NCBI GenBank assembly: GCA_963565915.1
Contig: OY751491.1
Location: forward strand, 1,550,001 to 1,614,000
From: Entoloma clypeatum
Taxonomy: Eukaryota; Basidiomycota; Agaricomycetes; Agaricales; Entolomataceae
Direction: 5' to 3'
DNA length: 64,000 nucleotides
In this document: positions 4,014 to 53,113 of the stretch, in pieces
How the letters are laid out: each line of letters starts with the position of its first letter
Numbering within the stretch: the stretch's first letter is position 1
Notes under the pieces: model-generated
What the model saw: only the letters and a program-made list of their open reading frames with translations
The model's database searches: none
Told to the model about the DNA's origin: nothing
Made by a program: the position numbers and the translations under genes

Positions 4014-4162
4014 GATTAATTATGGAGGCTGTTGAGGTTGGATTCTTCTTATACAACTTTCCTTGACAACCCATCAGGGTTCTATTCAAGTTCCATCAGT
4101 AAGTCATGACAACTGGTTACCATACAACCAGTGAAGCATTTGATTCTGATAATTGCCATAGG

Positions 4163-4375: not shown

Positions 4376-4390
4376 TAGCTGCCCAGCCCT

Positions 4391-4541
4391 GCAGGGGAGT
4401 CCTTAGAACTTTCTCTTTGGATCTCCCTTGCAAGGTGTGTGTTGTATTGTACATCGTCGAGCTTAATTCAAACTTTGGATCTCCCTTGCAAGCCATCTGA
4501 CGTCGGAGCTGCTTTGGAGCACTTTGGATTTCAAGCAAAGT
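4391..4541 (+). repeat. 150-bp direct repeat, copy 2 (right of Tc1 element)
   Basis: Starts GCAGGGGAGTCCTTAGAACT and again carries two TTTGGATCTCCCTTGCAAG words, ending near GGAGCACTTTGG. Diverged partner of 2583-2732. This may be an older duplication or two copies of a short dispersed repeat between which the Tc1 landed. Confidence 0.6.
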
Positions 4542-10777: not shown

Positions 10778-11247
10778 GTGTTTGTTTCTGTCATTACGAG
10801 ACCGAATTTTTGTTTTTTATGTTTTGTCAATGCCAAAATTGGCACAAGACAAAGTTTCCACATTTTTGCCATCAGAAGTTGACCTTGATTTTATATCTAG
10901 ATCTTGTATGGACTTTTTAGTGTTTCATGGAGGGTTTGAACCACCGCAATACTGAATCTTGGCACCTCGATCCAGATTCATGACCATGTCCTCTGGCAGC
11001 CCCAAATATGCTTTCTCCCCAACACATTGCACAAAGAAAGTTATCCCACACAAGGGCGTGGCGGTGTACTGTGTCTCCCGCTCCGGCTATGATGTATGTC
11101 CCCAAAACATGGATGCTTGCTCAATGCTATGACATCTGTTTTTCTGCTTCAAACAGCTGGCCCACCACAGCCTACATGGTTATCGAGCTATTGAGCTCCT
11201 GGAGAATTGAATGCCCCACCCGCGCCGACTAATACGAATAGCTCGAC
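10778..11247. other. Intergenic, no gene seen
   Basis: 3' flank of the Crinkler gene. A T-rich segment at about 10800-10840 follows the stop. No open frame with recognisable content. It ends at the TCGAC target duplication of the solo LTR. Confidence 0.5.
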
Positions 11248-11790
11248 TGTCATAACCATACGATTCACATCCGACTTATCCGACGACTCCGACGATTCAT
11301 CCGCTCCGACATCTGCTCCAACAACATTCTATTTATATTGATTATACTTCTACTACGTAACATCTCAACCATACTTACAAGTAGACATATGTTGTTCACT
11401 TTTCATTTGCTACTCTCCGTACTCCGAATGTTCCGATGGTCAACTCCGATATCTGCACATCACTTATAGTAATACTGATCATTCTAGTCTACTATAAATA
11501 GTGTACAAACCTGTCGTAGAACCTCAGTTCAAATATCATATGTTACACCTCATTCACATCCGTCTCTACTTGCCTTTGAGCATTCTCTCCGTCACCTCCG
11601 CTCATCTGCTCATCTGCTCATCCGACATGTGCCAATCCGAAATCGAGGACCACATCAAAGAGTGGGGCGCAACGCACAAGTTGAAGCCAGGTCCTTTCTG
11701 CCAACGTCGCACTTACCACATTGCGCTCCTCCGCTACTCCGCTCCGACTCGTCCGACGTTTTCCGATGTTGAGAAACACACTACGTGACA
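11248..11790 (+). repeat. Solo LTR of gypsy family A
   Basis: Runs TGTCATAACC ... CTACGTGACA, 543 bp, near-identical to the 3' LTR of element A (27646-28180). It is flanked by a perfect 5-bp duplication TCGAC (11243-11247 and 11791-11795), so it is a complete insertion whose interior was lost by LTR-LTR recombination. A TATA box and the CAGTTCAAATAT start region are present as in the full element. Confidence 0.95.
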
Positions 11791-12278
11791 TCGACCACTG
11801 GCCAGGAACACAAGAAGTTTCCAACGAAGCTTGAAATGTAGCAAAGTAAGCTCTGCAAATGCTCAAGTGAGCCAAACTTAGGAGCGACGCAGTATAAGTG
11901 AAGATCCAGAACTGTTGAGTAACCCCGCTGATAAGGCCGCGCTGCGTCTAGGCCTAAAATCTGCACATTTGCACCCTTTCACACCATCTCTAAGGGATAT
12001 AGAGAGTCCTAGATGAGCTCCGATTCTGAGGACTTAGTGGCAACGTTAGAGAGAGACCAGCGACCCTGGCAATGTAGGACATAGCGCTGGTCACCACTAT
12101 GGGCTTAGCTATGATACTCGAGAGCTATGGGATCGTCTCACGAGATAGAAAAGACTATTGAGTGCCTCTCATGACGAAGCGTGAAACAAGGAGATGGGTT
12201 ATATTGGAATTATCGATGACACTAGCACTGTCTACTATACGTCGGGGCTTGACCGGAGACATTCTCGCGAGAGGTTTG

Positions 12279-12759
12279 TGTTAAGAACTGATCGACAAAA
12301 CGTCGGAGCTACGTTGGACGCGTCGGAAGGTCGGAGGGTCGGAGCGCGTGCAACGTAGGGGCAAGGACTTGGCTTCAACTTGTGTGTTGCGCCCTCGCTA
12401 ATACGTTGGTGTCCTTATTTCGGAGGATCGGAGGATCGGAGGTCGGAGGTCGGACTCAAGTTAAGAGTCGGAAAGAGGACGGGAGGTGTGATGTCGAATC
12501 TAAGTTGATATTCAAACTGAAGCTAATACATGATTCATAAGTTTAAATACTATGTCGGAGGACATGTGGCTTCGTCGGAGTCGGATAACGAGTGGCTGTT
12601 GGAGATTCTTAACATAAGTAAAATGGTCGGATGTAAGTAATGTACGTAGTAACGAGATTCATAACAGTAAGTATGCATAATAAGTATTAGTCAAAATGTC
12701 GGAGGTGTCAGAGGTGTCGGGATTGGTCGGAGATCGTCGGAATGGATCGGAATGTAACA
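12279..12759 (-). repeat. 3' LTR of element B
   Basis: 481 bp. On the plus strand TCGGA occurs many times. The right edge abuts the polypurine tract of B. Differences from the 18902-19382 copy are single bases, seven of eight being CpG versus TpG or CpA. Confidence 0.95.
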
Positions 12760-12776
12760 GTATTTCCCCCTTGGGG
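12760..12776 (-). promoter_or_regulatory. Polypurine tract of element B
   Basis: Read on the minus strand, CCAAGGGGGAAATAC ends directly at the LTR start TGTTACA. The block GGTTCGGCCCCAAGGGGG is shared with element A (27626-27645), where it also abuts the LTR. Confidence 0.85.
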
Positions 12777-12924
12777 CCGAACCCATGAGGCTAAGGACCT
12801 AGGTGGTCGGTGCGCGTGAACTGCGTCATGTGATGCGTTGGTTGAAAATACCGTCTGAGTGGTTCTTTCTTCTTGTTCCCCCATTCTCTTTTCGTTTTAA
12901 ACTCTTCCAAAAATAAACCTCAAT

Positions 12925-13900
12925 ATGTCGGCATCCCATTTTCAAAAGGAGATGGAGGCGCTGCAGGCTAAGCTCGCGGAGGTGGAGGCGAAAAAGCGAG
13001 CAGCGGAGGAGGAGGCTGCGAGGAAGGCTGAGGAGGAGCGGAGAGCGGAGGAAGAGAGGGCTGCGGAGGCGGCGCGGTTAGCGGAGGAGATGCGGGTAGC
13101 GGAGGAGATGCGGGTAGCGGAGGAGATGCGTCGGGCATCGGAGCTGGCGGCTCAGAAGAGGGCCGATGAAGTGGCCGCTGCGCAAGGCGCATCGAGCAAG
13201 GGGTCGGGGGGGCCGCAGGCGGAGAAGAAGAAGAAGACGACGAAGAAGAGGAAGATGGAGGAAGTGTCGGCGATGGTCAGAGAGGGGTCGGGAGTCGGGG
13301 TCGGGGTCGGCACCTGTGATAGGTGCATTGTGAAGGGCGTCGAATGCGAACGCGATGAGTAAGTTCTTCTTTGGTTCGTCTCTTCTGTTTTAACCTTTTG
13401 TTTTTAGGAATAAGACGTCCTGCAAGGGTTGTATCAAAGACAAGAAGAAGTGCGAGGTCGGAGTGTCGGAGGGGAAGTCGGAGGTGAAGCGTACGGTGAA
13501 GGTGAAGGGAAAATGGAAAGCGACAGAGGTCGGAGGGTCGGAGTCGGAGGTGACGCTGTTGAGCGTCTTGAAGGAGATTTTGGTGGAGACGAGGCAGATC
13601 CGAAGACTGCTCTCAGCAGTTGAAGGAACTGTCAACATTGCATACGTGCCAGAGGAAGTGGAGGAATCGGAGTCGGAGTTGGAGGGATCAGGGAAGTCGG
13701 ATGTGAATGAGGAGATAGAGGAGTTGAGCCTGGAGCAGAGGCTGGTGAAGAAGATCAAGCAAGACATGTTGAATTGGAAGAGGTTGGATATGCCGGAGCA
13801 GTCCGACATGGACATATCGGACGAGTCGGAGAAGGCGGAGTCAGAGGGGGAGTCGGACAAGGAGGAGGGTCCGTCCAACAAGAAACAACGTACTAAGTAG
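12925..13900 (+). CDS. Antisense accessory gene of element B: coiled-coil protein with Zn2Cys6-like cluster
   Basis: Two exons, 12925-13358 and 13408-13900 (49-bp intron, GTAAGT..TTTTTAG), 308 aa, on the strand opposite gag-pol. Its stop lies 27 bp from the pol stop, tail to tail. Residues 1-85 are a highly charged coiled coil with the repeat RVAEEM. A basic NLS-like EKKKKTTKKRKMEE follows. The six-cysteine module is C131-x2-C134-x6-C141-x8-C150-x2-C153-x6-C160, fitting the Zn2Cys6 spacing, with the intron splitting codon 145 between the third and fourth cysteines. The rest is acidic and Ser/Glu-rich, ending PSNKKQRTK. It is homologous to the antisense gene of element A. No frame break, although gag and pol of this copy are broken. 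Function is unknown; a nuclear DNA- or chromatin-binding role is inferred only from the module. Confidence 0.85.
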
Positions 13901-13927
13901 ATCGAATAGTACTTGTTTTTTCTTGTT

Positions 13928-16900
13928 TCAGAGCGATGTGAGCGGACCCGGTTTGTCGGGATAAGCGGAGTGAAAGTCGGAGACAAGCTCGGGGGCGTTT
14001 TCCAATTCATTGGCTGGTAGCCAAGAGAATTCTTCATCAGTGTTTTCATATCCTAACCAACGGACGAAATATAGTAGCTTGCAGCTACGTCGTCGGTCGA
14101 TCTTTGAGTCGACTATTTCAGCGATATCGTACTCAAGTTCTCCGTCAATGTCAATCGGAGGAGGCGGAGGTTGGGTCCGATTCGGAATGGTGTTCGGAGT
14201 TGCGGGTTCAAGCATGGAGACGTGGTAGACGGGGTGAACACCGCGGAATGTGTCGGGGAGTCGGAGGGTAAAGGAGTGTGTGCCGGGTTGTGCAATGATC
14301 TCGTATGGTCCCAAGTACTTTTCTGAGAGTTTCTTGGATGGGCGTGTTGTGCGGAAGAACTGTGCTTTGACGAAAACCTGTTGTCCGACAGAAAATGTCG
14401 GAGGTGCGATCCGATTATTGTCGGAGGACTTCTGGTAGCGTCGTTGGGCGTCGGAGATGGTGGCTTTCAGTTCTTGGTGAAGTTCGTCTAAGTCGGTCAT
14501 GAAGGATCGGGCTCGGGAAGAGGCGAGGTCTCGTTCCGGGTGAACAGTAATGTTTGGATGGTAACCCTTTTTAGCAAAGAAGGGAGATATGCCAGTGGTA
14601 GCACTAGGTGCATTGTTGTACGCGAACTCCGCAATCGGAAGGAGAGTGGACCAGTTGTCCTGTTGGTAGTTGCAGAATATCCGCAAGTATTGTTCGAGGG
14701 TCTGGTTAGTGCGTTCAGTTTGGCCATCGCCTTCGGGGTGGTAACTGGAGGTGAAGTGGAGGGTCATGTTTAGAGCCTTTCCGAGAGATAGGAAGAATCG
14801 GGAGACAAATTCGGGGCCGTGGTCGGAGGTGACATGTTCGGGGACGCCGTGTTTAGAGAAGACGTGTAGTACGAAAAGTACGGCAAGGTCTTCGGAGGTG
14901 CAATGAATTGTTGTCGGAATGAAAATACTTTGTTTCGTTAATCGGTCAACGATAACGAGGATTGAATCAAAGTTGTCGGAGGTCGGAAGGGTCTCAATGA
15001 AATCCATTGAGATAGAATTCCAAGGACGTTCGGGGATCGGAAGCTGTTTGAGTAGGCCGTAAGGCTTGTGTCTTTGGGGCTTCGATCACATGCAAGTGGT
15101 ACATGACTTGCAATAGTGTTTAACGAAATCTCGTATTCCGGGCCAGGTATAATCACGCTGAATGAGACTGAGTGTCTTGTTCTGACCTGGGTGTCCAGCA
15201 AGCATATGATCGTGCTTGTGCTGTAGGACTCGGAGTCGGAGGTCGTCGGAGTCGGGAACATATATCCGATCGTCATGTCGGAGGAAACCATCGGGGTCGA
15301 GAGACCAGCGGGGTTTAGGATCTTTAGAAAGAGTGTCGTAAAGAGTGTCGGAAGGGAGTGCTGTGTGTATGTCATGGTGAAGCTTCTCTGTGTCCATGAT
15401 AATGGTTGCACGGAGGACGGGCTCAAGGAGTTGAGTTGCGCGAACTGAAGCGGAGAGCTGTTCTTGCGAAAAGACTGGTCGGAGGTTGGTCGGATTGATG
15501 TCGACGTAGTCGCTATTTCCCCCTTTAGGATAGACATCCCAACGTCTAGTTAGAGAGTCAGGTTTAGTTCCCAATTGGCCGGGGCGGAATCGGATGACGA
15601 GGTTGAACTGAGAAAGGTATTCTGACCATCGGACTTGTCGGTGTGAAAGAACTTTGGTGGTGGCAAAATACTCGAGATTTTTGTGGTCGGTAACGACGTC
15701 AATCGGAGTACTGGAGCCTTCGAGGTAATGGCGCCAAATTTTAAACGCTTCGTAGATGGCAAGAAGTTCCTTATCGTGGGTGTCATAGTTTACTTCGGGG
15801 GCCGTGAAGGTGCGGGAATGGAATGCGACGGGGTGGACTTCATTGTCGGAGGTGACTATCGACAGAATAGCCGCTAGGGCATAGTCGGATGCGTCAGTTT
15901 CGACAATTATCGGAGAGTCGGGGATCCAGTGTGTCAGGATCGGAGCGGTGGTAAATGCCTTTTTCAGGTCATTAAAAGCGGTTCGAGCATCGTCGGAGAA
16001 CAACCAAGTGGCATGTTTCCTGGTTAAACGAGTGAGTGGAATAGTGATGTTGGAATAGAATGGAATGAAACGTTGGTAAAAGTTTGCAAAACCTAAAAAG
16101 GACTGGACGTCCTTCACTCTGCGCGGTTCAGGCCAATCCTGAATAATCTTGACTTTCGCTTCTGACATTTTGAGTCCGTCGGGAGAAAGGATAAATCCAA
16201 GATATTCTACAGTTTCGGCAGAGAAGTCGCACTTGTCGGCGCGGGCGTAAAGACCATGTTGTCGGAGTCGTCGGAGGACTTCTCGGACATGTTTTTTGTG
16301 TTCCTCGGGGTTGTCGGAGTAGATCAGGATGTTGTCGAGGTAAACGGTAACGCAATTGTCCAGAAGGTCGGAGAAGATGTCGTTCATAAAATGTTGAAAG
16401 GCTGCAGGTGCGTTAGACAATCCGAATGGCATGACTAACCATTCAAATGATCCATAGCGAGTGCGGAATGCAGTTTTCCATTCGTCACCTTCAGCGATGC
16501 GGACTAGGTGGTATGCGTGTCGGAGGTCTATGGTGGTATAAACGCGTGCTTTTCCGGCAGTGGCTAAGAGGTCGGAGATGAGTGGAAGTGGGTATCGGTC
16601 CTTCTTCGTGATTTTGTTCAGGCCTCGGTAGTCGACGCATAGTCGGAGTGATCCATCTTTCTTTCGGACGAAGAGGATCGGAGTGCTGTGAGGTGAACTA
16701 GAAGGTTTGATGAAACCGATATTGAGGTGCTCGTCGATGAAGTCTCGGAGGGATCCGAGTTCGGATTGCGAGAGTGAGTACATCGGACCAATCGGAGGGG
16801 AAGTACCTTCCTCCAAATTGATCTTGAGGTTGTACGGTCGGTGGGGTGCAAGGGTGTCGGCTTTTTTCTTACTGAATACATCAGCAAAATCGTGGTATTC

Positions 16901-17628
16901 CTTGGGTATGCCAGAGAGGTCGGGAGCGTCGTCGGAGACAGACGCGGAATCGGCGGAGATGTCGGAGAGGTGAACGCGGAAAGCGTATGCCCCAGGAGCT
17001 TTACATGCATGGAGATATGTGGCTGCATTGACCATGGTAATCTGTGGCAGGTCGGAGGTGTTCGGAGTGAGCGGATCGGAGGTGCCCATCGGAGAGGGCG
17101 GACACTGCAGAGGTGGCGGAGCTGCCTCAGCAGTCAACGTTGGAGTCGGACTCGGAGTGTTGGGTAACATAGAACGGAATAAGATACTGCCCAATACCCA
17201 ATCAATCAATGGATTGTAGCGGGTGAGCCAGTTGTGTCCTAGAACCAAATTACAAGACAAATCGAGGGTTGTCACGTAAAATGCGACGGTCAGAAGTTCA
17301 CCGGAAGGAAATCGGAGAGGAAGATCGATAGATTGTGTGATATAAGTATTTGAAGAACCGTCAAAAAGTTTCAAAACCATAGGTGAAGGAATCGGAGTCG
17401 GAGATAAGTTTAAAGAAGAAATAAATCTGGTATCTGCGAAGCAATGTGTAGAACCAGAATCAATAAGAGTCTTTATCGGAAGAGAATCGGAAAAGGTCGA
17501 AGATATCAAATCAATACATAGAGAGTTCGGATTTGAGAGAGCGGACGCATTGAGTCGGAGGGTTTCCAAAGGTGCACGAAAGGAGTCAACGCAATCCCCA
17601 GTACGTGCTGGAATCTGAGGACTGCTTA
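13928..17628 (-). pseudogene. pol of element B: protease, RT, RNase H, integrase, chromodomain
   Basis: In order: aspartic protease ([13 protein letters not shown]), RT ([11 protein letters not shown]; catalytic motif reads YLDN, with the Asn codon at 16331-16333, instead of YLDD), RNase H (VETDASDYAL), integrase zinc domain (HDHMLAGHPG..CKSCTTC), DDE core ([27 protein letters not shown]) and a C-terminal chromodomain (CKLLYFVRWLGYENTDEEFSW). One in-frame TGA at 15086-15088 separates the integrase zinc domain from the core. The frame from 17569 is offset relative to gag by small indels near 17540-17628. RT and integrase losses both fit CpG to TpG or CpA change (D to N in YLDD; DRG to DHG beside the second catalytic Asp). 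Confidence 0.95.
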
Positions 17629-18855
17629 CTATTTTTTTGACTCGGTCGTCTTCTCCGATTTGTCCTCAGCTTGGGCCGCGCGGGCCTTTGCTTTGGCGTT
17701 AGAAGGCAATTTCTTCGAGCAGTCGGAAGCCCGATGACCAACGTTGCCGCAAAACATGCATAAATTATTGTCAAATCGTCGTTGGCGTTCTTGGGGAGTT
17801 AATTTCCCATCTTTGCCAAGTTTGTCGGAGAGGGCGGATTTCGGAGAGGTGGATGACGATTTTTGTTGTTGTTGCGAGTTGGGTTTAGACGATGAGGAGT
17901 TGTTGTTGGAGGATGATGAAGCGGGGGTCTGTTTTTTGTCGGATTTGTCGGATTTGTCGTATTTCGGGGTAGATTTGTCGGAGGAGCGCGATTTCTCGCG
18001 TTGACGTTCCCAGTAGTGAGCATCAATGTTATGGGCCATTACTTTCAACTCGGCAAGAGTCTTTGGTTTGGGAAAAGTCCCCAAAACGTCCTTGATGCAT
18101 TCCGCTAAACCGGTATAGTACCAATATCGGAGTGCGCCATCATCCCACTGCGTGCGAGCAGAAAGACGTTTGAAGTCCACGTTGTAACGTAGGATCTTCT
18201 GATTGTCGCGCATCCGAAGGTGATCCAGGCTATCCTCTGCTTCTCCGGTCGGATCGATAGGTCCGAATTCGGATCGGAGGATGTGCACAAAGGCGGACCA
18301 GTCGTCCAACCAGACAGAGTCGTCGTCGGACTCTCCCAAGAGGGTGGGCTCAAACCATTCGAGCGCGGTTCCTCGGAGGTACGACAGAGCGAAACTGACT
18401 TTGTTATCATCGTCGTCAAAGGCAGGGTTGTTTTGGAAATATAGCGTGCATTGTGCGAGGAAACTGGTGAGTTTCCGAGAGTCGGAACCGTCAAAAGTGT
18501 CGGGTTCCTTCGACTTCTTTTTCGGAGTTTTCGGAGTCTCTCTACATCAGAGCTCCTGCGTCATAAGCATAATTGCTTCGGCGAGGTTTGGAGTTTGCTC
18601 GCGACGGAAAGGGTTGTTATCGTCAAAAGGAGAGGTCGGAGATTTAAAAGGACGGAATTCTTCAGGAATCAGAGGTCCTTGTGTCTGAGGTGTTCGGAGA
18701 CGAGGTGTCGGAGATATGGGGTCAGGTTTGGGTGCAGATTCATCTGCGGGAATATCTTGGAACGTGTGTAGAAATGTCGCCCTGGTGTCCTGCAGGTTTG
18801 AAGCTTCCGCTGCGGCTGCTGCTGCGCGGGAGTTCTGTGTGTTGCGGGCTGCCAT
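17629..18855 (-). pseudogene. gag of element B, one internal TGA
   Basis: Starts ATG at 18855 (MAARNTQNSRAAAAAAEASN). The capsid region includes EPDTFDGSDSRKL, SYLRGTALEWFEP and YNVDFKRLSARTQWD, then a Lys/Ser-rich linker and one zinc knuckle CMFCGNVGHRASDC (C-x2-C-x4-H-x4-C). It ends ESKK-TAG at 17629, as in element A. A single in-frame TGA (18547-18549) lies after LMTQEL. The rest of the frame continues unbroken on both sides, so one base change probably inactivated it. Confidence 0.9.
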
Positions 18856-18887
18856 AACTGGAATTTGAAATACGGATAAGCGAGTGG

Positions 18888-18901
18888 CAGTTTGAATATA
18901 C
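18888..18901 (-). promoter_or_regulatory. Self-primer binding site of element B
   Basis: The first bases after the 5' LTR on the minus strand are GTATATTCAAACTG. ATATTCAAACTG (18899-18888) is the exact complement of CAGTTTGAATAT in the LTR (19142-19131), itself about 30 nt downstream of TATTTAAA (19172-19165). There is no TGG-starting tRNA primer site. See the Tf1-like self-priming finding. Confidence 0.7.
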
Positions 18902-19382
18902 TGTTAAGAACTGATCGACAAAACGTCGGAGCTACGTCGGACGCGTCGGAAGGTCGGAGGGTCGGAGCGCGTGCAACGTAGGGGCAAGGACTTGGCTTCA
19001 ACTTGTGTGTTGCGCCCTCGCTAATACGTTGGTGTCCTTATTTCGGAGGATCGGAGGATCGGAGGTCAGAGGTTGGACTCAAGTTAAGAGTCGGAAAGAG
19101 GACGGGAGGTGTGATGTCGAATCTAAGTTGATATTCAAACTGAAGCTAATACATGATTCATAAGTTTAAATACTATGTCGGAGGACGTGTGGCTTCGTCG
19201 GAGTCGGATAACGAGTGGCTGTTGGAGATTCTTAACATAATTAAAATGGTCGGATGTAAGTAATGTACGTAGTAACAAGATTCATAACAGTAAGTATGCA
19301 TAATAAGTATTAGTCAAAATGTCGGAGGTGTCGGAGGTGTCAGGATTGGTCGGAGATCGTCGGAATGGATCGGAATGTAACA
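18902..19382 (-). repeat. 5' LTR of element B
   Basis: 481 bp. The promoter is inferred from TATTTAAA at 19172-19165 on the minus strand. The inferred transcript start region is CAGTTTGAATAT at 19142-19131. The outer edge is followed by the GTTTG target duplication. Confidence 0.95.
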
Positions 19383-20317
19383 GTTTGGTCAACGTGCGCT
19401 GTGCTTCACGTCCAAATTGTCCGTATCGGGAATATCGAAATGACATCGGATGATACAGACTGAGATCGGGTTTGATATGTTGCGATCAACATGACCTTAT
19501 GGTGAACTTTGATAGAGATCGAATCTGATGGGTGGCTTACCGAGGCGACCCTTAATTGATGCAGTTGATACCTCACGGTAACTAGTCAGCATCATCCCGG
19601 GTACATTGCAAAACCCAGCTATTGAAATAGTGGCCTCTCCAGTACGGCAGAGGTTCGGATATGGAAAAGGGGCGCACCTGTGGCATTGTCTACCACATGG
19701 GCGCATCGAAACGACTTTAGCGAAGGTCATTTGACTGGATACCATTTATCAATACCACATGCAACCTTTCTCTATATTTATTGCTGCTCATGTATAAAAT
19801 CTCGTAGTTTCGTCGTAGATAGGTTAGGTTAGATTGTGCCCCAGAATTGATAGCATTTGTCTTGTGCATCTGTCGTCATTCACGAGTATCATTGAAGCCT
19901 CGAGATTGTTTGGTTTGCATCGGAAGTCAGTTGCGATTGTGTTTTGTGTGTTCGAGAACTTGTCAATCGTCAAATCATGTTATCTATCGGTCATATTGGT
20001 CATTGTCGTGTTCGTATTCAGTTGAGATCATGTTTGCGAAGTCTTGTTGGTTTGGAAATCACAAACCTCAGTTCATTATCTATTGAGAACTATCTCTAAG
20101 TCTTGTTCAAGACTTATTGAGCCATCGCTAAGCGAGTTATTCAATTGTTGTTTGGAAGAGTCGCATCCTGAGTGATCCCACTCATCACCCCGAACTATAT
20201 CGATTGAGAAGTACGCATCGCGAGACTTGTTCGGTCTTCGTTGTTGTGTTTGGTGTTTGTGTGTGTGATAGAGATATCGCTCGCGCTCATCCCCAGACTC
20301 ACTTCCTTCGTTTCATC

Positions 20318-20336
20318 TGGAGCCCACCGTGAGGGG
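20318..20336 (+). promoter_or_regulatory. Primer binding site of element C (candidate)
   Basis: TGGAGCCCACCGTGAGG begins 2 nt after the 5' LTR end (20315). The TGG start and position fit a tRNA-primed site, complementary to a tRNA 3' end. The tRNA was not identified. This differs from the self-primed A and B elements. Confidence 0.6.
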
Positions 20337-20467
20337 TGGTTCTAAAATAACAAATTTACTCAGTGTCGGCTCGATACAGTTCCTCTCAAGGAATTTAGTT
20401 ATAGTTCTCACTTGAGAGATAACCCTGTCCTCTACAAGCAAACCCACTGTTGCATCTAGCAGCAAAC

Positions 20468-21472
20468 ATGTCAAAGCAAACTCGTGGAAGCCTCCAGTTC
20501 ATAAAAGAGGTCTCGCGAGCGGTCATAACCCGAAGACAACGTCTCTAAAAGCATCATCTTCAAAAGCAACAAATTCACAATCTATTGAAACAGCTCGTGA
20601 GCACGTGACCCGTAGTCTATCGAAAGCAGGAGCAGAACTAGTAGGACCTCTCAAAGAGCCCATAAAGCCTACTCAAAAGAGAACACTAGAAAACCTTGAA
20701 TCAGAAAGGCTACTAGCATTGCGAGAGCATTCAGTATCCATTGTGCAACCAATAGAAACTCAAAATCAAAATCTTAACAGTCAATTGTCGACATATACAA
20801 TGGCTACAAATACACAGAATGTTGCAGCAACTGCACCAAGGAATGGTTTGAGAATGCCGCGTTGAAGTGAACGAGGAGCCCCGAGATTTGATAAAGAAAA
20901 GGCCTCCGAGCTTTTAAGATTTATCGATGAAGTCGAAATCTGCTTTGACCACGCAGGTATAACCGATACTGTGGAAAAGAAAAAGTTAATCGGAGGCTAT
21001 GCAGATAGTGTCTCGGAAGAAGAATGGACAACCCTCGATTCCTATGCTACAGGAACATGGGAGGAGTATAAGAAAGAGTTAATAAACAACTACCCAGTGG
21101 TAGCGAGCAGACGTGACGGTACCTTGGCCAGATTATCGAGTATCTGCAAGGAGTACAGTCGTCTTGGATTAGGCAATCTAGATGAAATTATGTCCCTGAA
21201 ACATAGTTTCAAAGCCGAAGCTAAGAAACTGACTGGTGCGAATGGTTGTATCTCCAATCATGAGCTCATGGGGAGGTTCTTGAGTTGTTTAAACGACAAC
21301 TTTGCAGAAGCGGTCAAGTTGAGATTGTCCATGATGGACAACGCGGCCACAGCAAATAATGCCGCGGCAGCAGTGGTAAGACATCAGGATAATCTCGTAG
21401 ACTTGAGTGACATGATAGAAATTGTTGAGAAAATGGCAAGGCACCATAACGATTTCACCGCTTCCAATAATT
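20468..21472 (+). pseudogene. gag of element C, 5' part, cut off by element A
   Basis: An ATG at 20468 (MSKQTRGSLQ) opens a frame that shifts near 20545. The main frame then runs from about 20605 with an in-frame TGA at 20863-20865. The capsid-like region follows (GAPRFDKEKASELLRF, KKLIGGYADSVSEEEWTTLD, SRLGLGNLDEIMSLKHSFKA). It breaks at 21472, where element A's truncated LTR begins. The zinc-knuckle end of this gag resumes at about 28181 (HFLRECTELQM). Confidence 0.8.
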
Positions 21473-21516
21473 ACTCGTCCGATGTTTTCCAATGTTGAGA
21501 AACACGCTACGTGACA
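21473..21516 (+). repeat. Truncated 5' LTR of element A (44 bp remain)
   Basis: ACTCGTCCGATGTTTTCCAA to CTACGTGACA matches the last 44 bp of the LTRs at 28137-28180 and 11747-11790. About 490 bp, including the promoter, are missing. Confidence 0.9.
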
Positions 21517-21529
21517 GTATATTTGAACT
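21517..21529 (+). promoter_or_regulatory. Self-primer binding site of element A
   Basis: GTATATTTGAACT directly follows the 5' LTR. ATATTTGAACT is the exact complement of AGTTCAAATAT in the A-family LTR (27924-27934), which lies 33 nt downstream of TATAAATA (27891-27898). Element B has a different but equally paired sequence. Confidence 0.7.
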
Positions 21530-21567
21530 ACCACCATTCTTTGATTTACCCAACAACCTCTACCCAC

Positions 21568-22854
21568 ATGTCTCAAACCCGTAATACAGTTCGAACAACT
21601 AGGACTGCTCGTGCAGCAGCAGAACGTTCATCCTCCACATCACGCTCTGCTTTTCTTCGAGGAACATGCAATGTAACCATTACCCCTCGAGGAGCCACAG
21701 CATCATCATCCGCTCCTACCCCCGGACCATCCGTTCCTGCGCCTTCTTCCGACTCTCAGCTCCCACCACTTCCTGCCAGTCCTCCACTAAACCCACCAAT
21801 GGAACCCTCCGCACCTCTAAATTCTGGCTTATTCGGCGGACCTCCAGGAGGATCTCCTCCTCCTTCCGACGGTAGTTTACATGGAGATTTGGACGACTCC
21901 GATTCCAATCCAGATCAGGAACCCAATCTAGCTGAAGCCATTCTGCTCATGACCAAAGAGTTGAAACATCGAGATACAAAGAAGAAAAAGTCGTATGCCA
22001 ACGAACCGGATACCTTCGACGGATCCGATCCGCGCAAACTCTCCGCATTCATTTTACAATGCAAACTTTACTTCTCCGACAATGACAACTTCGACTCAGA
22101 ACATTCCAAAGTCAACTTTGCCATGTCTTACTTCCGAGGCACAGCACTCAAATTTTTTGAACCCTTCATTCTTGACAATGATGAACCCAATTGGCGGGGT
22201 TCTTTCCCCGAGTTTGTCCGACTTCTCCGCTCCGAGTTTGGTACCATTGACCCTCAGGGCGAAGCCAAAGAACAGTTGGACAACCTACGGATGAAGGAAA
22301 ATCAAAAGATATTGAAGTACAACGTTGAATTCCAATGTCTTGCTACCAAGACTGACTGGGATGAAAACTCCCCCCGACACCGCTACTACGTCGGACTTCT
22401 GGATCGGATCAAGGACATCCTCTCCCAACAACCCAAGATCAAGTCTTTACCAGACCTACGATCCGCGGCTCATACTATTGACGCTCGCTACTGGGAACGT
22501 CAACGAGAGAAATCCAGAACCGATAAACCCACTCCCAAGTCCGACAAGAAACAATCCACTCTGAACCAATCCACTGCACAAACATCATCAACCAAACCCT
22601 CCGCTACCGCTTCCGCTTCCACATCCGCTCCGAAACCCGACCTCTCCAGTAAATTAGGCAAAGACAGCAAACTGACATATCAAGAACACAAACGTCGTTT
22701 CAATAATAACCTTTGCTTATTCTGCGGTAGCGTCGGACATGCTGTCAAGGACTGTCCCAAGTCCGCCTCCTCCGCTTCCAAGGCTAAAGGGAAAGCCGCC
22801 CAAGTTGGCACTCAAGCCAAGAAAAAAGGTAAGGAGATCGAGTCAAAAAAATAG
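21568..22854 (+). CDS. gag of element A, 428 aa, intact
   Basis: Start ATG at 21568 (MSQTRNTVRTTRTARAAAER), chosen by match to the start of B gag. A Pro/Ser-rich N-terminal linker, capsid core (EPDTFDGSDPRKLSAFIL, SYFRGTALKFFEP, NVEFQCLATKTDWDE), basic linker, and one zinc knuckle CLFCGSVGHAVKDC. It ends ESKK-TAG. pol continues in the SAME frame right after this TAG, so pol expression needs read-through, reinitiation or a similar event. The same gag end is seen in B. Confidence 0.92.
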   Translation: MSQTRNTVRTTRTARAAAERSSSTSRSAFLRGTCNVTITPRGATASSSAPTPGPSVPAPSSDSQLPPLPASPPLNPPMEPSAPLNSGLFGGPPGGSPPPSDGSLHGDLDDSDSNPDQEPNLAEAILLMTKELKHRDTKKKKSYANEPDTFDGSDPRKLSAFILQCKLYFSDNDNFDSEHSKVNFAMSYFRGTALKFFEPFILDNDEPNWRGSFPEFVRLLRSEFGTIDPQGEAKEQLDNLRMKENQKILKYNVEFQCLATKTDWDENSPRHRYYVGLLDRIKDILSQQPKIKSLPDLRSAAHTIDARYWERQREKSRTDKPTPKSDKKQSTLNQSTAQTSSTKPSATASASTSAPKPDLSSKLGKDSKLTYQEHKRRFNNNLCLFCGSVGHAVKDCPKSASSASKAKGKAAQVGTQAKKKGKEIESKK

Positions 22855-22857
22855 GCA

Positions 22858-25800
22858 GTGGTCCTCATGAAGCACGGTCTGAGGACTGCATTGACTCTCT
22901 CCGTGCCTCCGCTCCCATCCGACTTAACACGTCCGCTCTCCGATCCGAACTCTTTACGTATCAATATCTCATCTTCTTTTTTCTCTTCAGATTCTGTCCC
23001 AGCACTTATTGATTCAGGATCTACCCACTGTTTTATTGACATTAACTTTTCCTCCGCTTATGATCTTCCAACCTCCGCTATTCCGCCTTTAGAACTAAAG
23101 CTTTTCGATGGTTCTTCTAACGTGTTTATCACTCAAGTTGTAACAATACCTATATGTTTTCCTTCAGGTGAATCTTTCGAACAGGATTTTTATGTTACTC
23201 CGCTCGACTCCGCTTCTTCCGTGGTTCTTGGATACAACTGGCTCACCCGCCACAATCCTATGATTGACTGGGTATTGGGCAGTATCACTTTCCGTCCACA
23301 GATGCAAAAAGAGCCGTTTCCGACATCGATGTCGACCCCCTCCCAAGGTAGGACAGCTACGCTTCCTCCTCCGGAACCTCCGATCGTACCTCCGCAGATT
23401 TCACTCATTAACGCAGCCGCATTTATGAGGGCATGCAAATTGCCTGGTACACTATCCTTTCGACTTCACCTTTCAACTCCCTCCGTTTCCGCTCACTCCG
23501 CATCTGCTTCCGACACCCCCGACTTGACAAACGTACCCGAAGAATACCACGACTATGCTGACGTCTTCAGTAAAGGAAAAGCAGACACTCTTCCACCCCA
23601 CTGTCCCTACGACCTCAAGATCAAACTTGAAGAGGGCTCCGCTCCTCCGTTCGGTCCGATCTACTCCCTTTCACAAACTGAACTCAATGCCCTCCATGAA
23701 TTCATTGACGAACACCTCACCATTGGATTCATCCGACCCTCTTCCTCTCCGCACGGTGCTCCTGTCCTTTTCGTTCGTAAAAAGGATGGCTCCCTTCGTC
23801 TTTGCGTTGATTTCCGTGGTCTTAACAAAATCTCAAAGAAGGACCGATATCCGCTTCCGCTCATATCCGACCTTCTCCAGACCGCTGGAAAAGCCAGTGT
23901 TTATACGGCTCTCGACCTCCGACATGCCTATCACCTCGTCCGCATAGCAGAAGGAGATGAATGGAAAACCGCCTTCCGCACGCGCTATGGGTCTTTTGAA
24001 TGGCTTGTCATGCCATTTGGACTCACCAACTCCCCAGCTGTTTTCAATGCTTCATGAACGACATCTTCCACGACCTGCTCGATAAGTACGTTACCATATA
24101 TCTCGACGACATCCTCATCTACTCCGACTCTCCCTCCGAGCATCGGAAGCATGTCCGCGAAGTCCTCCGATGTCTCCGACAACACAGCTTATATGCATGC
24201 GCAGACAAATGCGAGTTTTCTACGGATACTGTTGAATACCTTGGCTTTATCCTCTCTCCGACAGGCCTCCGCATGTCAGATAAGAAAGTCAAAATTATTC
24301 AAGATTGGCCTGAACCAAGGAAGGTCAAAGACATTCAGTCTTTCTTAGGTTTTGCCAATTTTTATCGACGATTCATTCCTTACTACTCCGAAATCACTGT
24401 TCCGCTCACTCAACTCACCTGCAAAAACACACAATGGCATTTCTCTGACTCCGCTCGCGAATCTTTCAAAACTTTGAAGAAAGCCTTTACCACGGCACCT
24501 GTTCTTATGCATTGGATTCCCGACAGCCCTATTATCATCGAAACCGATGCCTCCGACTATGCTTTGGGTGCGATCCTCTCCATCCGCACCTCCGACGACG
24601 AAATCCATCCGGTCGCTTTCCACTCCCGCACCTTTACACCTCCCGAGTTAAACTATGACACCCATGACAAAGAACTATTAGCGATCCACGATGCATTCAA
24701 GGTTTGGCGTCACTACCTTGAAGGCTCCGCTGCTCCAATCGATGTCATAACGGACCACAAAAATCTTGAGTACTTTTCTACTACCAAGATTTTATCATGT
24801 TGACAAGCTCGTTGGTCTGAATACCTCTGCCAGTTCAATCTCGTCATCCACTTCCGCCCTGGCCATTTAGGTACGAAGCCCGATCTTTTAAGTAGACGAT
24901 GGGACGTCTACCCTAAAGAGGGAAATAGCGACTATTCGTCCGTCAACCCAAGCAACTTCAAACCCATCTTCACACAAGAACAGCTCACCACTTCACTTCA
25001 CGCAACAGAGTTATATATGCCCGTCCTCCGTGCCACAATCATCATGGATACAGATCAGCTCTGCTCCGACATCCTCTCTGCTCTTCTGACCGATCCCATT
25101 TACACCTCTTTCCTCAACAGTCCTAATCCATGCTGGTTCGTGAATGAAGCAGGTTATCTACTCCACAATGGACGTATCTACGTTCCCGACTCATCCGACC
25201 TCCGTCTCTGCATCCTCCGCAATAAGCACGACCATATCCTCGCTGGACACCCTGGTCAAAATAAGACTATTAGTCTTATCCAACGAGAATACACTTGGCC
25301 TGGAATGCGCGACTTCATCAAAAAGTATTGCAAGTCATGTACCACTTGTATGCGCACCAAACCCCAATGTCATAAACCCTACGGTCTGCTTAAACAACTC
25401 CCTATTCCTGAACGTCCCTGGCATTCTATTTCCATGGATTTCATTGAACCCCTTCCAACATCCGCTGGCTCCGATGCGATTCTGGTCATTGTAGACCGCC
25501 TCACTAAACAAGGCATCTTCATCCCTACCACCATTAATTGCACATCCGAAGACCTAGCAAACCTTTTCGTGCTTCACATCTTTTCCAAGCACGGAGTTCC
25601 GCAAAATGTCACATCCGATCGTGGACCTGAATTTGTCTCCCGCTTTTTCCGCTCTCTTGCAAAAGCCCTCAACATGAGACTTCACTTCACTTCTGGATAT
25701 CACCCTGAAGGTGATGGTCAAACTGAACGCACCAACCAGACACTGGTCCGCTTTGCTTCTGCTTGCGGAGTTTGCTTACAACAACACTCCGAGTGCCACT

Positions 25801-26469
25801 ACAGGTGTATCACCATTCTTCGCCAACAAAGGTTATCATCCCGACATTACACTCCATCCGGAACGTGATCTAGCATCCGATAAAGCTTGACAATACATCG
25901 TCGACTTAGATGAATTACATCAAGAACTAAAGACTGCTGTCGCAGAGGCACAACAATGTTATCAAGGCCCTGCGGACGTCCGACGTTCTCCGCCTCCTCC
26001 GCTCCGCGTTGGACAAGAAGTCTTTGTTAAAGCCAAGTTCTTCCGCACCACACGACCCACCCAAAAGTTATCCGACAAATATGCTGGCCCATTTGAAATC
26101 ATAGCCCAACCCGGCACGCACTCCTTTACACTACGTCTACCCAACACCATGCGTGCTATACACCCCGTCTTCCACATATCCATGCTCAAACCAGCAACTC
26201 CTAACGAGATTCCAAATCGGATACAATCTCCTCCGCCTCCACTCGAGATGGACGGAGAAACCGAATACGAAATTGCGGAAATCGTCGACTCAAAGATTGA
26301 TAAAAGACGATGCTGCAAACTCCTTTACCTCGTCCGCTGGTTAGGTTATGAAGACACCAGTGAAGAGTTTTCTTGGTTACCCGCATCCGAGCTTGAACAC
26401 GCAGCGGATACGGTAGCGGACTTCCACTCCGCTCAACCAACTAAGCCAGGCCCCTTATCGTGCTTGTAA
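22858..26469 (+). pseudogene. pol of element A: protease, RT, RNase H, integrase, chromodomain
   Basis: Protease [26 protein letters not shown] and intact YLDDILIYSD (near 24100); RNase H ETDASDYALGA; integrase zinc domain HDHILAGHPG..CKSCTTC; core [27 protein letters not shown]; chromodomain CKLLYLVRWLGYEDTSEEFSW; stop 26467-26469. Breaks: a one-base loss near 24044 shifts the frame before YLDD; TGA at 24801-24803, where B has CGA in the same codon; a deletion of roughly 15-20 codons after TNQTL near 25745; TGA at 25888-25890. The promoter-bearing 5' LTR is also lost, so the copy is dead. Confidence 0.95.
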
Positions 26470-26513
26470 CAAGAAGAAAAGAAAATCTATTAAAATTTTA
26501 TACTAACAAAAAA

Positions 26514-27514
26514 CTACTTTCGCTGTTTTTTGTTAGATACCCCCTCCGTTTCCTCATTCCACTCCGATCCAGATTCCGCATCCGCTTCCTCCATCCGTTT
26601 CCGCTTCTTTGTTTCTTCTTCTTTTTCTTCTTCTTCTTCTACCTCCCTTCCCAAGTCCTCCAATACCCTATCATACTCCTCCGCATCCTCGTCCTTGTCG
26701 GATCCCTCCTCCGAAGCCTCCAAATCCTCCCTCCACGCGATAACCGTCAAAAGCTCCTTGATCTCCCACAGTTCCTTCAACTCCGCCTTTATCAGCCGCA
26801 TCTCCCTTATCATGCTCCTAAGCCCTCTCACCACCTCCGTGCCTATGACCACCTCCAGCGGACCAAACCCCTCCGGCATGAACTCTGGCTCCTCCGACGC
26901 TGCGGCTATCCGCAATCCCTCCGTGGTCCCCTCTCCCTTGGACGATCCCGCCTTCGCGTTCTTCGTCGCACCACCTGCCACCTTAGCCTTTCCGACCCTC
27001 ACCGCCTTGGTCATCCTCCGCTTCACCTCCGACTCCGCTTCCGCTCCCGTTCTGCAGCTTTGTTTTAAACGCTGGCACCGCCAGCACGATGAAGCATTGT
27101 CATTCCTAAAGAACAAGTTAATAACGAAGCGTATAAAGAAATAGAAAAAACTCACTCCAATGGCCAAAAACACAAGTCCCCCGCTTTCAAGCAGGAGGTG
27201 CAATCCTCCTTCCCCTGCTCGTAACTCGCAGGCATATTCTTGAAAACCCCCTGCAGCCGGACCTTCTTCACCTCCGCATTCGCCACATCCACATCCGCAC
27301 CCGCACCCACAACCGGTTCCTTCGCCTTCGCCTTCTCTGCCTTCCTCTCTGCTCGTCTCTGCTCTTTTGCTGCCCTCTTTGCCTCCGCGTGCTCTGCATC
27401 TTCCTTCGTGCACTCCTCTGCCTCCTGTAGTTTCCTCTCCAACTCTTCAGTGACCTTCTTCTGGCGCTCCCTTTCAGCATGAAGAGCGGCGAGGGGTGAG
27501 TTCTCAGCGGACAT
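26514..27514 (-). CDS. Antisense accessory gene of element A: coiled-coil protein with Zn2Cys6-like cluster
   Basis: Two exons on the strand opposite gag-pol: 27514-27156 and 27105-26514 (50-bp intron GTGAGT..CTTTAG), 316 aa. Its stop is 45 bp from the pol stop, tail to tail. The N-terminal ~80 residues are a charged coiled coil (ERERQKKVTEELERKLQEAE) with basic RRAERKAEKAKAKE. The six-cysteine module is C105-x2-C108-x6-C115-x11-C127-x2-C130-x6-C137. The intron splits codon 120 (GA|G), followed by Asn, exactly as in element B. Then a helical stretch (MIREMRLIKAELKELWEIKE), a long Glu-rich acidic tract, a basic KKRKRMEE, and C-terminal VSNKKQRK, shared with B. No frame break despite decay of pol. 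Function unknown; nuclear regulator of the element or of host chromatin is inference. Confidence 0.85.
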
Positions 27515-27623
27515 AACGGATAGGCGTCGGGATAGATGTTGTGGTTGGGTGACAAGAGAGAAAGATCACGCACAAAGCTTTTCAACCAACAGTCACGTGG
27601 ATTACCTCATCTGGGCCTCAGGG

Positions 27624-27645
27624 TTCGGCCCTAAGAGGGAAATAC
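27624..27645 (+). promoter_or_regulatory. Polypurine tract of element A
   Basis: GGCCCTAAGAGGGAAATAC abuts the LTR start TGTCATAACC at 27646. It is nearly identical to the tract of element B. Confidence 0.85.
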
Positions 27646-28180
27646 TGTCATAACCATACGATTCACATCCGACTTATCCGACAACTCTGACGATTCATCC
27701 GCTCCGACATCTGCTCCAACAACATTCTATTTATATTGATTATACTTCTACTACGTAACATCTCAACCATACTTACAAGTAGACATATGTTGTTCACTTT
27801 TCATTTGCTACTCTCCGTACTCCGAATGTTCCGATGGTCAACTCCGATATCTGCACATCACTTATAGTAATACTGATCATTCTAGTCTACTATAAATAGT
27901 GTACAAACCTGTCGTAGAACCTCAGTTCAAATATCATATGTAACACCTCATTCACATCCGTCTCTACTTGCCTTTGAGCATTCTCTCCATCACCTCTGCT
28001 CATCCGCTCATCCAACATCCGCCAATCCGAAATCGAGGACCACGTCAAAGAGTGGGGCGCAACGCACAAGTTGAAGCCAGGTCCTTTCTGCCAACGTCGC
28101 ACTTACCGCATTCCGCTCCTCCACTACTCCGCTCCGACTCGTCCGACGTTTTCCGACGTTGAGAAACACGCTACGTGACA
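27646..28180 (+). repeat. 3' LTR of element A
   Basis: 535 bp, TGTCATAACC..CTACGTGACA, with TATAAATA at 27891-27898 and the self-primer partner AGTTCAAATAT at 27924-27934. TCCGA pentamers are abundant. It differs from the solo LTR 11248-11790 by an 8-bp indel and scattered bases. Confidence 0.95.
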
Positions 28181-51935: not shown

Positions 51936-53113
51936 CCTACTCTTATACATAGTAGAATATACTATTACCAATATCCAACCAACCCCCTGAGGTATAGGTG
52001 ATTAATATGGCTAAAAAAGCGGTCAGGGATGGAGGAGTGAGAAGGAGCACATACCTCTTCTTGAGATACTGGCCTCCCCAGCCAAGATGTTACATGTAGG
52101 TTGGTTATAGAGTATATATGTGTGTGGGGGAAGGTACATGGGCACGCCAGCATGGGTAGAACAAGGTGAAAAGAGTGAAGATGTATGTACTTACCTTGGG
52201 TGCAGATCATTGTCTTGACCCCTCAATATGGTCAGGGCACCTATTTAGGCCTATTCTATAGTATAAATAGGTCTTCAAGTATTGGTAGTACAAGGTGTGC
52301 AATGGCTAGATTAGGTAGAAAAGTGTATAGAATGAGATGTACATCAAAAATACATATTCCTCAGCTAGCATTAGTATCTTATGATAGATAAATATATAGA
52401 GTGCTACAGAGAGTGTCATGGATGTATATATACACACTGAAAAAGACCCCAAAGAAATCCAAGCAGTGTGGAAGGCAGAGGATACCGCTTTGTCTGAATT
52501 GCACTTCAGGATGGTATGTTTATAATAAGTCTTGTTCTCTAGTTGTGTTTTCGGTACTGAATCATGTCTCCCACCTTCCACACTGCTTGGATTCCTTTGG
52601 GGTCTTTTTCAGTGTGTATATATACATCCATGACACTCTCTGTAGCACTCTATATACTTATCTATCATAAGATACTAATGCTAGCTGAGGAATATGTATT
52701 TTTGATGTACATCTCATTCTATACACTTTTCTACCTAATCTAGCCATTGCACACCTTGTACTACCAATACTTGGAGACCTATTTATACTATAGAATAGGC
52801 CTAAATAGGTGCCCTGACCATATTGAGGGGTCAAGACAATGATCTGCACCCAAGGTAAGTACATACATCTTCACTCTGTTCACCTTGTTCTACCCATGCT
52901 GGCGTGCCCATGTACCTTCCCCCACACATATATATACTTTATAATCAACCTACATGTAACATCTTGGCTGGGGAGGCCAGTATCTCAAGAAGAGGTATGT
53001 GCTCCTCCTCACTCCTCTGTCCCTGACCGCTTAGTTAGCCATATTAATCACCTATACCTCAGGGGGTTGGTCGGGGATTGGTAATAGTATATTATACTAT
53101 TTATAAGAGTAGG
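51936..53113. repeat. Fold-back: 540-bp near-perfect inverted repeat
   Basis: Left arm 51936-52475 and right arm 52573-53113, reverse complements at roughly 96-97% by eye, separated by a 97-bp spacer. Arms start CCTACTCTTATA and include CAACCCCCTGAGGTATAGG, a TATAAATAGG box and AAAAAGACCCCAAAG at the inner edge. No protein. It fits a fold-back/MITE element or two identical repeats joined head to head; flanking target duplication not certain. A transcript across it would form a 540-bp hairpin. Confidence 0.9.

What the first reader, a model, noticed from the sequence alone, without database searches (positions are those of the whole stretch)
12925..27514. Homologous antisense Zn2Cys6-like genes carried by two gypsy chromoviruses
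Element B (12925-13900, plus, against minus-strand gag-pol) and element A (27514-26514, minus, against plus-strand gag-pol) each encode a ~310-aa protein between integrase and 3' LTR on the opposite strand. Shared: a two-exon structure with a ~50-bp intron cutting the same codon (GA|G, then Asn) between cysteines 3 and 4; C-x2-C-x6-C-x8 or 11-C-x2-C-x6-C; N-terminal charged coiled coil; acidic tail; terminal SNKKQR motif; a stop 27 or 45 bp from the pol stop, tail to tail. Seen directly: layout, cysteines, intron. Known: this cysteine spacing is that of fungal Zn2Cys6 binuclear clusters. Inferred: an element-borne nuclear regulator transcribed convergently with gag-pol, for example controlling its own element, insertion or silencing. 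Both reading frames are intact in copies whose pol is dead, hinting at selection or trans function. I do not know of a description of such a system.
Basis: partly seen in the sequence, partly recalled or inferred. Interest (0 to 1): 0.92.

Follow-up and report, generated by a model that had tools for sequence, protein, structure and literature searches.

The report
Antisense zinc-cluster-like genes in retrotransposons
Several families of jumping genes in one genome, probably a fungus, carry a conserved, spliced gene on their opposite strand that looks like a DNA-binding protein, and the same elements are peppered with a short one-directional DNA word such a protein could recognise, hinting at a self-recognition system.

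Summary
Elements A and B each carry, antisense and tail-to-tail to pol, a two-exon gene (316 and 308 aa) with a 49-50 nt phase-2 intron inside a C-x2-C-x6-C-x8/11-C-x2-C-x6-C module. The genome holds at least 150 matches to each and to a third family, D. Within A and B, dN/dS is 0.17-0.39 (14 pairs; upper 95% limits 0.27-0.57), lowest in the zinc module: purifying selection on a protein.

New: A, B and D are studded along their length with (T/G)CGGA on the antisense-gene strand (131-154 sites, 26-30 expected; 8-19 on the other strand). In B pol it exceeds synonymous shuffles in all three frames; positions turn over between A and B; flanks differ by family. CGG is the classical zinc-cluster half-site (recalled). 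A copia ORF and an old gypsy lack the excess. But chromovirus C, with no antisense gene, has it too, less strand-biased.

Best reading: an element-encoded nuclear DNA-binding protein recognising its own element (VANC-like activation or anti-silencing). Antisense accessory ORFs are known (plants, Botrytis Boty brtn); I found no zinc module or polar word described. Binding is inferred, not shown.

The parts
12925..13358 (+). B antisense gene, exon 1 (N-terminal charged coiled-coil-like stretch, basic KKKK..KKRK, Cys 1-3)
   Evidence: same exon in the B-type copies aligned
13359..13407 (+). B intron, 49 nt, phase 2, between Cys 3 and Cys 4
13408..13900 (+). B antisense gene, exon 2 (Cys 4-6, basic linker, long helix, acidic tail, C-terminal SNKKQRTK)
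13480..13840 (+). patch of exon 2 (approximate ends) exchanged between B subfamilies: 58-80% identical to copy L042 while most flanking windows are 93-100%
27156..27514 (-). A antisense gene, exon 1
27106..27155 (-). A intron, 50 nt, same phase and place as in B
26514..27105 (-). A antisense gene, exon 2
12279..19384 (-). element B (gag-pol on minus), LTRs 12279-12761 and 18902-19384; 154 (T/G)CGGA on the plus (antisense-gene) strand against 17 on minus
11246..28180 (+). element A (gag-pol on plus), LTRs 11246-11790 and 27644-28180, split by the nested B; 135 (T/G)CGGA on the minus strand against 19 on plus
12303..12751 (+). TCGGA array in the B 3' LTR: 18 sites, none in the other orientation, 9 of 17 spacings 6-10 nt
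   Evidence: other-strand count 0 over the LTR windows
13928..15085 (-). B integrase core, SH3_Tf2-1 and chromodomain; its stop faces the antisense gene's stop
15086..17665 (-). B protease-RT-RNase H-H2C2; TCCGA 44 against 13.5 (sd 2.7) in synonymous shuffles, frames 15/15/14
25891..26469 (+). A SH3_Tf2-1 and chromodomain; its stop faces the antisense gene's stop

Best explanation
A clade of chromovirus (Ty3/gypsy) families in this genome encodes, antisense at its 3' end, a spliced nuclear DNA-binding accessory protein: N-terminal charged coiled-coil-like part, six-cysteine binuclear-cluster-like module, basic linker, long helix (probable dimerisation), acidic tail, C-terminal basic motif. I propose that it binds CGGA-core sites (B: GTCGGAG; A: (A)GCGGA and TCGGA; D: (T/G)CGGAG) spread in one orientation along its own element, densest in the B and D LTRs, and by coating the element raises its expression: most likely by opposing silencing, as VANC proteins do for Arabidopsis VANDAL transposons, or by plain activation of the LTR promoter. 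Shown: gene, intron, purifying selection (A, B), motif excess, polarity, and turnover of sites (A against B). Inferred: transcription, nuclear location, zinc and DNA binding, identity of the binder, and the outcome.
For: Gene and intron conserved in A, B and D; A-D module similarity z = 6.2 and A-B z = 11.2 against shuffles of the same composition. Purifying selection: 14 within-family pairs 0.17-0.39, all upper 95% limits below 0.6; zinc module 0-0.20; C-terminal NKKQ kept between A and B although codons differ. Motif on the antisense-gene strand against the other strand: B 154:17, A 135:19, D 131:8, with 26-30 expected on the first by dinucleotide shuffles. B protease-RT-RNase H ORF 44 TCCGA against 13.5 (sd 2.7, max 21 of 300 synonymous shuffles), equally in three frames. 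Only 15 of 58 B sites are kept in aligned A pol, near background (19% of all 5-mers, 42 of 198 other NCGNN), so density, not position, is kept. Triple direct repeats of TCGGA: 3065 in the genome against 2 for the reversed pattern. Family flanks differ: base before CGGA is T in 77% of B, G or T 42% each in A, G 36% and T 40% in D. Best solved-structure hit of the B module is GAL4 (a CGG binder, recalled), though at E = 1.
Against: Chromovirus C (pol 37% identical to B) has no antisense gene (pol stop 11 nt before the 3' LTR) yet shows the same excess (88 and 53 sites against 19 expected per strand), so a host factor or another shared factor may be the binder, or C may use the protein in trans. 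B-D module similarity alone is not significant (z = 1.4). Pfam Zn_clus below cut-off in A and B, no such hit in D. The reason for strand polarity is unexplained. No expression data. A and D coding enrichments over synonymous shuffles are weaker than B's: two of four A ORFs stay within the null maximum for both words, and three of six D pieces only equal it.
Confidence: 0.5

Rival explanations
1. The CGGA arrays are binding sites of a host zinc-cluster (or other shared) factor that all these chromoviruses exploit; the antisense protein is a separate accessory protein, for example an adaptor or chaperone in the nucleus.
For: Family C has the motif without the gene; its LTR also carries an array; the genome has other Zn_clus matches (29 at E<=0.01).
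Against: Strong polarity is seen in 3 of 3 examined families with the gene, 7-16 fold, against 1.7 fold in the 1 examined family without it; motif flanks differ between families, which a single host factor would not obviously cause.
Confidence: 0.28
2. The motif works in RNA: the genomic RNA carries UCCGA/UCCGC repeats recognised for packaging or export, by Gag or by the antisense protein acting like a Rev-type factor.
For: One-strand polarity over the whole element including coding sequence.
Against: Family C is enriched on both strands, its ORF with hardly any polarity; a CGG core suits a zinc-cluster DNA binder.
Confidence: 0.12
3. Only the antisense transcript matters (double-stranded RNA or interference with pol); the ORF is incidental.
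For: Convergent, tail-to-tail layout; antisense transcripts proposed as silencing triggers in plants (PMC7264820, passages).
Against: dN/dS far below 1, conserved intron and reading frame, protein-level conservation of Cys module and C-terminus.
Confidence: 0.05
4. A captured host gene carried passively by recent copies.
For: None found beyond the presence of an intron.
Against: Shared by families A, B and D with diverged pol, same intron site and phase, purifying selection in A and B.
Confidence: 0.02

Closest known systems
aORF-3R: antisense additional ORFs between pol and 3' LTR (plant Grande gene23, RIRE2, Retand TRP28; fungal Boty brtn)
   Same: Same place and orientation; present in most copies; nuclear or DNA-binding role suspected; Boty shows it occurs in fungi (PMC7264820 passages and section 5; PMC11963269 passages; brtn seen only as cited, Zhao et al. 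2011 not read). [quoted passage not shown] orientation not seen).
   Different: In the two papers on plant aORFs a search for 'zinc' and 'intron' gave 0 occurrences in the main text; here a six-Cys module, a phase-2 intron inside it, and family-specific polar CGGA sites.
VANC anti-silencing proteins of Arabidopsis VANDAL transposons
   Same: Element-encoded protein with a short motif that accumulates in its own element, differs between related families, and is shared by an unrelated element (AT9TSD1), as C, a distant relative, shares it here (PMC5735166, passages; PMC10398659, abstract).
   Different: Plant VANDAL elements, not retrotransposons; motif in non-coding tandem repeats, whereas here it is in LTRs and coding sequence and in one orientation; no demethylation data here.
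Fungal Zn2Cys6 binuclear cluster proteins (GAL4 type)
   Same: Cysteine spacing; CGG as core of the enriched motif (GAL4 site recalled, not from a call).
   Different: Below the Pfam cut-off; no other Pfam domain found in A or B; module preceded by a coiled-coil-like part; encoded by a retrotransposon.
TET/JBP dioxygenases carried by fungal DNA transposons (PMC12730594, start of abstract in the listing only)
   Same: Fungal elements carrying an accessory gene that could oppose DNA methylation.
   Different: Enzymes, in DNA transposons; no sequence motif system described in what I saw.

Membership tests
aORF-3R (antisense accessory ORF) | lies between pol and 3' LTR, antisense to gag-pol | tested here: met
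   A, B and D
aORF-3R (antisense accessory ORF) | kept in many copies of the family with conservation like other element proteins | tested here: met
   153, 153 and 151 matches for A, B and D exon 2 (capped lists, some loci give two matches); by hand count about 36, 19 and 12 of the roughly 150 listed rows have a stop in the matched stretch; dN/dS 0.17-0.39 against 0.08-0.41 for the pol tail. The share of all A, B or D copies that keep the gene was not measured.
aORF-3R (antisense accessory ORF) | own antisense transcript | not testable with these tools
   no RNA data
Zn2Cys6 (PF00172) | C-x2-C-x6-C-x5-12-C-x2-C-x6-8-C (spacing range recalled) | tested here: met
   x8 in B, x11 in A, x10 in D
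Zn2Cys6 (PF00172) | score over Pfam's gathering cut-off of 21 bits | tested here: not met
   11.5-15.8 bits for A and B modules, partial profile; no PF00172 hit for D; none for whole A and B proteins
Zn2Cys6 (PF00172) | two zinc ions bound, CGG sites recognised | not testable with these tools
VANC-type sequence-specific anti-silencing | short motif over-represented in the element's own sequence | tested here: met
VANC-type sequence-specific anti-silencing | motif lies in non-coding tandem repeats, not in coding regions | tested here: not met
   sites also in gag and pol
VANC-type sequence-specific anti-silencing | protein binds the motif and removes methylation | not testable with these tools
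   needs binding and methylation data
Boty brtn | sequence homology to BRTN | not tested
   BRTN sequence not available here; paper not read

The most novel reading that the evidence does not exclude
LTR retrotransposons of a fungus run a sequence-specific self-recognition system: an antisense-encoded zinc-cluster protein reads a polar, family-specific word written through the whole element, coding sequence included, to keep its own family active, and a distant family (C) has evolved the same word without the gene and uses the protein in trans. The word is kept by selection on density while sites come and go, so protein and word co-diverge between families.
Probability: 0.33. Interest if true: 0.93.

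Novelty: new variant of a known kind. Interest (0 to 1): 0.8.

Why it matters
The function of antisense accessory genes in LTR retrotransposons is still open (PMC7264820, abstract: roles not yet determined). Here such a gene comes with a recognisable DNA-binding-like module, clear purifying selection, and a candidate target word in its own element, so the question becomes testable by one binding assay. A polar motif in all frames of B pol, with turnover of positions between A and B, is an unusual signal of an element-wide cis function and, if bound by the antisense protein, would be a VANC-like recognition system arisen independently in retrotransposons. The family without the gene offers a built-in test of use in trans.

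Tried and rejected
Protein homologues: three searches of the 5.8-billion collection found nothing (B whole, E<=0.001, only the 7993 candidates sharing most words scored; B-type region 110-300, E<=1; D region 85-215, E<=1). I did not check how well fungi are covered there, so absence elsewhere is not shown. Solved structures: A module one irrelevant hit (E 0.75), B module GAL4 at E = 1 among 6 weak hits, D none. Hypervariable-cassette idea: the diverged patch in exon 2 of B turned out to be an exchange between subfamilies (post-zinc dS 0.69 against pol 0.022 for L005-L042; 0.085 against 0.536 for L033-L005), not diversifying selection (post-zinc dN/dS 0.31-0.40 in the six pairs that involve B1 or B2). 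Motif tied to patch type: not seen, B copies with either patch use GTCGGAG. Motif as dinucleotide or codon bias: rejected by shuffles for B. Motif exclusive to gene carriers: rejected by family C. Motif universal in LTR elements: against it stand a copia ORF (7 and 5 against 5.0 and 5.0 expected) and an old gypsy-like stretch (9 and 15 against 12.9 and 16.2), and a short chromovirus fragment (9 sites in 2.3 kb, no null computed); the last two look decayed, so they are weak controls, and beyond the copia ORF that same locus has a few more TCCGA. The other 28 kb of the window have 55 against 40.4 (sd 6.2) on one strand and 34 against 41.3 on the other: at most a slight excess. Structure of exon 2 alone: mean pLDDT 55.9, only the first long helix is confident, so no fold search was made. 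Literature: searches showed no zinc-cluster antisense gene or CGGA system in fungal LTR elements in the listings; the library holds open-licence papers only. The organism was not identified; 'fungus' is inferred from short introns and Zn_clus matches.
Full report
What is there. The two genes are real. In B (gag-pol on minus) a spliced gene runs on plus from 12925 to 13900; in A (gag-pol on plus) one runs on minus from 27514 to 26514. Both have a 49-50 nt intron with good splice sites, cutting the codon GA|G between the third and fourth cysteine. The elements are chromoviruses by Pfam (RT, RNase H, integrase, SH3_Tf2-1, Chromo). B is nested in A between A's 5' LTR and gag, with a 5-bp duplication. 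Neither antisense protein has any Pfam hit at E<=1 when searched whole.

The gene in other copies. The window lies in a 60.08-Mb, 20-contig assembly. Exon 2 of A and of B each gave 153 matches at E<=0.01; the scored candidates were capped at 150, so these are lower bounds, and some loci give two matches. By hand count about 36 (A) and 19 (B) of the roughly 150 listed rows have a stop in the matched stretch. I took loci from these lists, favouring good hits: 74 loci, 67 distinct places. 66 gave a spliced ATG-to-stop reading (172-348 aa, some truncated) and 62 of these a 48-53 nt intron at the same site; L007, L047, L054 and L056 were read with other introns by my script, and L072 gave none. 54 of the 67 rows kept for the next step have the family N-terminus (those rows exclude six duplicate loci and L072, and still include L019 and L028, which are the same place). 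For the alignments shown I kept rows over 270 aa and dropped odd-intron ones: 38 B-type, 13 A-type.

Selection. Sixteen chosen pairs were compared by Nei-Gojobori counts. Fourteen within A or within B: whole-gene dN/dS 0.17-0.39, bootstrap upper limits 0.27-0.57. Two A-B pairs: 0.50 and 0.40, with high synonymous distance. The zinc module has 0-0.20 in the fourteen. The pol tail has 0.08-0.41 in the 13 of these 14 pairs where it could be compared, so the antisense gene is not under stronger constraint than pol. Pairs are not independent. The antisense protein changes faster than pol (A-B dN 0.68-0.72 against 0.14). CpG decay is visible in some copies (for example SNKKQR to SNKKQC or SNKKQH).

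An exchanged patch. L001 and L042 are mostly 93-100% identical except over some 360 nt in the middle of exon 2 (58-80%). Synonymous distances show that B1 copies hold a patch from a B2-like element (post-zinc dS 0.085 to L033 but 0.69 to L042; pol dS 0.536 and 0.022). It reads as a recombinant that then multiplied, not as a sign of diversifying selection.

A third family. An array search (below) led to element D (L077). Its gag-pol is on minus and its antisense gene on plus: ATG 1009 (chosen by me; upstream in-frame ATGs exist), intron 1335-1383 (49 nt, phase 2, again between Cys 3 and Cys 4), 265 aa, C-x2-C-x6-C-x10-C-x2-C-x6-C, acidic tail, end PPAKKAKTQ. Exon 2 of D gave 151 matches at E<=0.001, about 12 of the listed rows with a stop. 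Module similarity to A is z = 6.2, to B only 1.4, so the homology of D with B rests on A and on the shared intron and plan.

The word. TCGGA occurs 337 times in the window against 137.8 (sd 13.4) expected. It is concentrated in A and B, on the strand of the antisense gene. Counting (T/G)CGGA per whole element against 100 dinucleotide shuffles: B 154 on the antisense-gene strand (29.6 expected) and 17 on the other (13.1); A 135 (26.6) and 19 (14.2); D 131 (26.3) and 8 (12.5). TCGGA, TCGGAG and GTCGGAG are the top 5-, 6- and 7-mers of B; CGGAG, GCGGA and TCGGA are the top three 5-mers of A. LTRs hold arrays, most close spacings 7-10 nt. In coding sequence, shuffling synonymous codons gives 13.5 (sd 2.7, max 21) TCCGA in the B protease-RT-RNase H ORF where 44 are seen, in frames 15, 15 and 14. 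B integrase has 15 against 5.3 and gag 15 against 4.8. A is weaker: TCCGC 16 against 5.9 (max 13) and TCCGA 10 against 4.1 (max 9) in the protease-RT piece, TCCGC 7 against 1.4 (max 5) in the last piece; the gag piece (10 and 11) only equals the null maxima and the integrase piece (6 and 6) is inside them. D, TCCG(A/C): 85 in six pieces against about 50 expected; three pieces exceed the maximum of 200 shuffles, three equal it. Of 58 B sites in aligned pol only 15 are TCGGA in A, close to the 19-21% kept for other 5-mers: density is kept, positions are not. Genome-wide, three direct TCGGA repeats 7-11 nt apart occur 3065 times against 2 for the reversed pattern.

The result against a simple story. 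Family C (L075) is the commonest intact chromovirus in the list (about 40 of 150 listed rows have its 1356-aa frame). Its pol ends 11 nt before the 3' LTR, so there is no room there for an antisense gene, and it is only 37% identical to B pol. Yet it has 88 and 53 sites per strand against 19 expected, also above synonymous shuffles. Its polarity is weak (1.7 to 1). So either a shared host factor reads the word, or C uses the A/B/D proteins. A copia ORF and an old gypsy-like stretch show no excess, and the other 28 kb of the window at most a slight one on one strand (55 against 40.4, sd 6.2).

How it most likely works. The protein plan (coiled-coil-like part, six-Cys module, basic linker, helix, acidic tail, basic end) is that of a small nuclear DNA-binding protein. 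CGG is the usual half-site of zinc-cluster proteins (recalled). I therefore propose that the protein binds its own element along its length and keeps it expressed. VANC of Arabidopsis is the nearest worked-out parallel: an element protein with a short motif that accumulates in its target elements, differs between related families, and is shared by an unrelated element (PMC5735166, passages). Which effect follows (demethylation, activation, even repression) is not decided by sequence.

Known and new. [quoted passage not shown] PMC11963269, passages; PMC8365987, passages). Retand's antisense TRP28 proteins are also suspected to bind DNA. A fungal chromovirus survey names an additional ORF of unknown function (PMC2864245, passages). 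What I did not find is a zinc-cluster-like, intron-bearing antisense gene, or a polar word spread through a retrotransposon.

Noticed in passing
window 12274-19387: Element B is nested in element A (between A's 5' LTR and gag) with 5-bp duplication GTTTG; B LTRs 98.3% and A LTRs 96.0% identical.
   Followed up: yes
L075 27-6128 and rows: A very abundant chromovirus (intact 1356-aa pol frame in about 40 of 150 listed rows) shares the CGGA word without an antisense gene; the window holds two pieces similar to its LTR, at 2581-2683 and 4390-4500.
   Followed up: partly
window 13480-13840; L005, L033, L042: Exon-2 patch swapped between B subfamilies; the recombinant then amplified.
   Followed up: yes
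window 3006-4019 (minus): 337-aa open frame that looks like a Tc1/mariner-type transposase (recognised by eye, not tested).
   Followed up: no
window 51936-53113: Large inverted repeat: 540-nt arms, 97% complementary, 98-nt spacer.
   Followed up: no
G000 C2:3074309, C12:78105, C12:198951, C13:87257: Four weak Zn_clus matches with the same profile span and nearly the same score, perhaps a repeated zinc-cluster gene on another mobile element.
   Followed up: no
window about 12760-12791 and 27615-27645: Block with the polypurine tract and GGGCCGAACCC(A)TGAGG is nearly identical in A and B although the surroundings have diverged; possible antisense promoter or priming element.
   Followed up: no
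window 58134-59282 (minus): Chromovirus integrase fragment, 43% identical to C, with few CGGA sites.
   Followed up: partly
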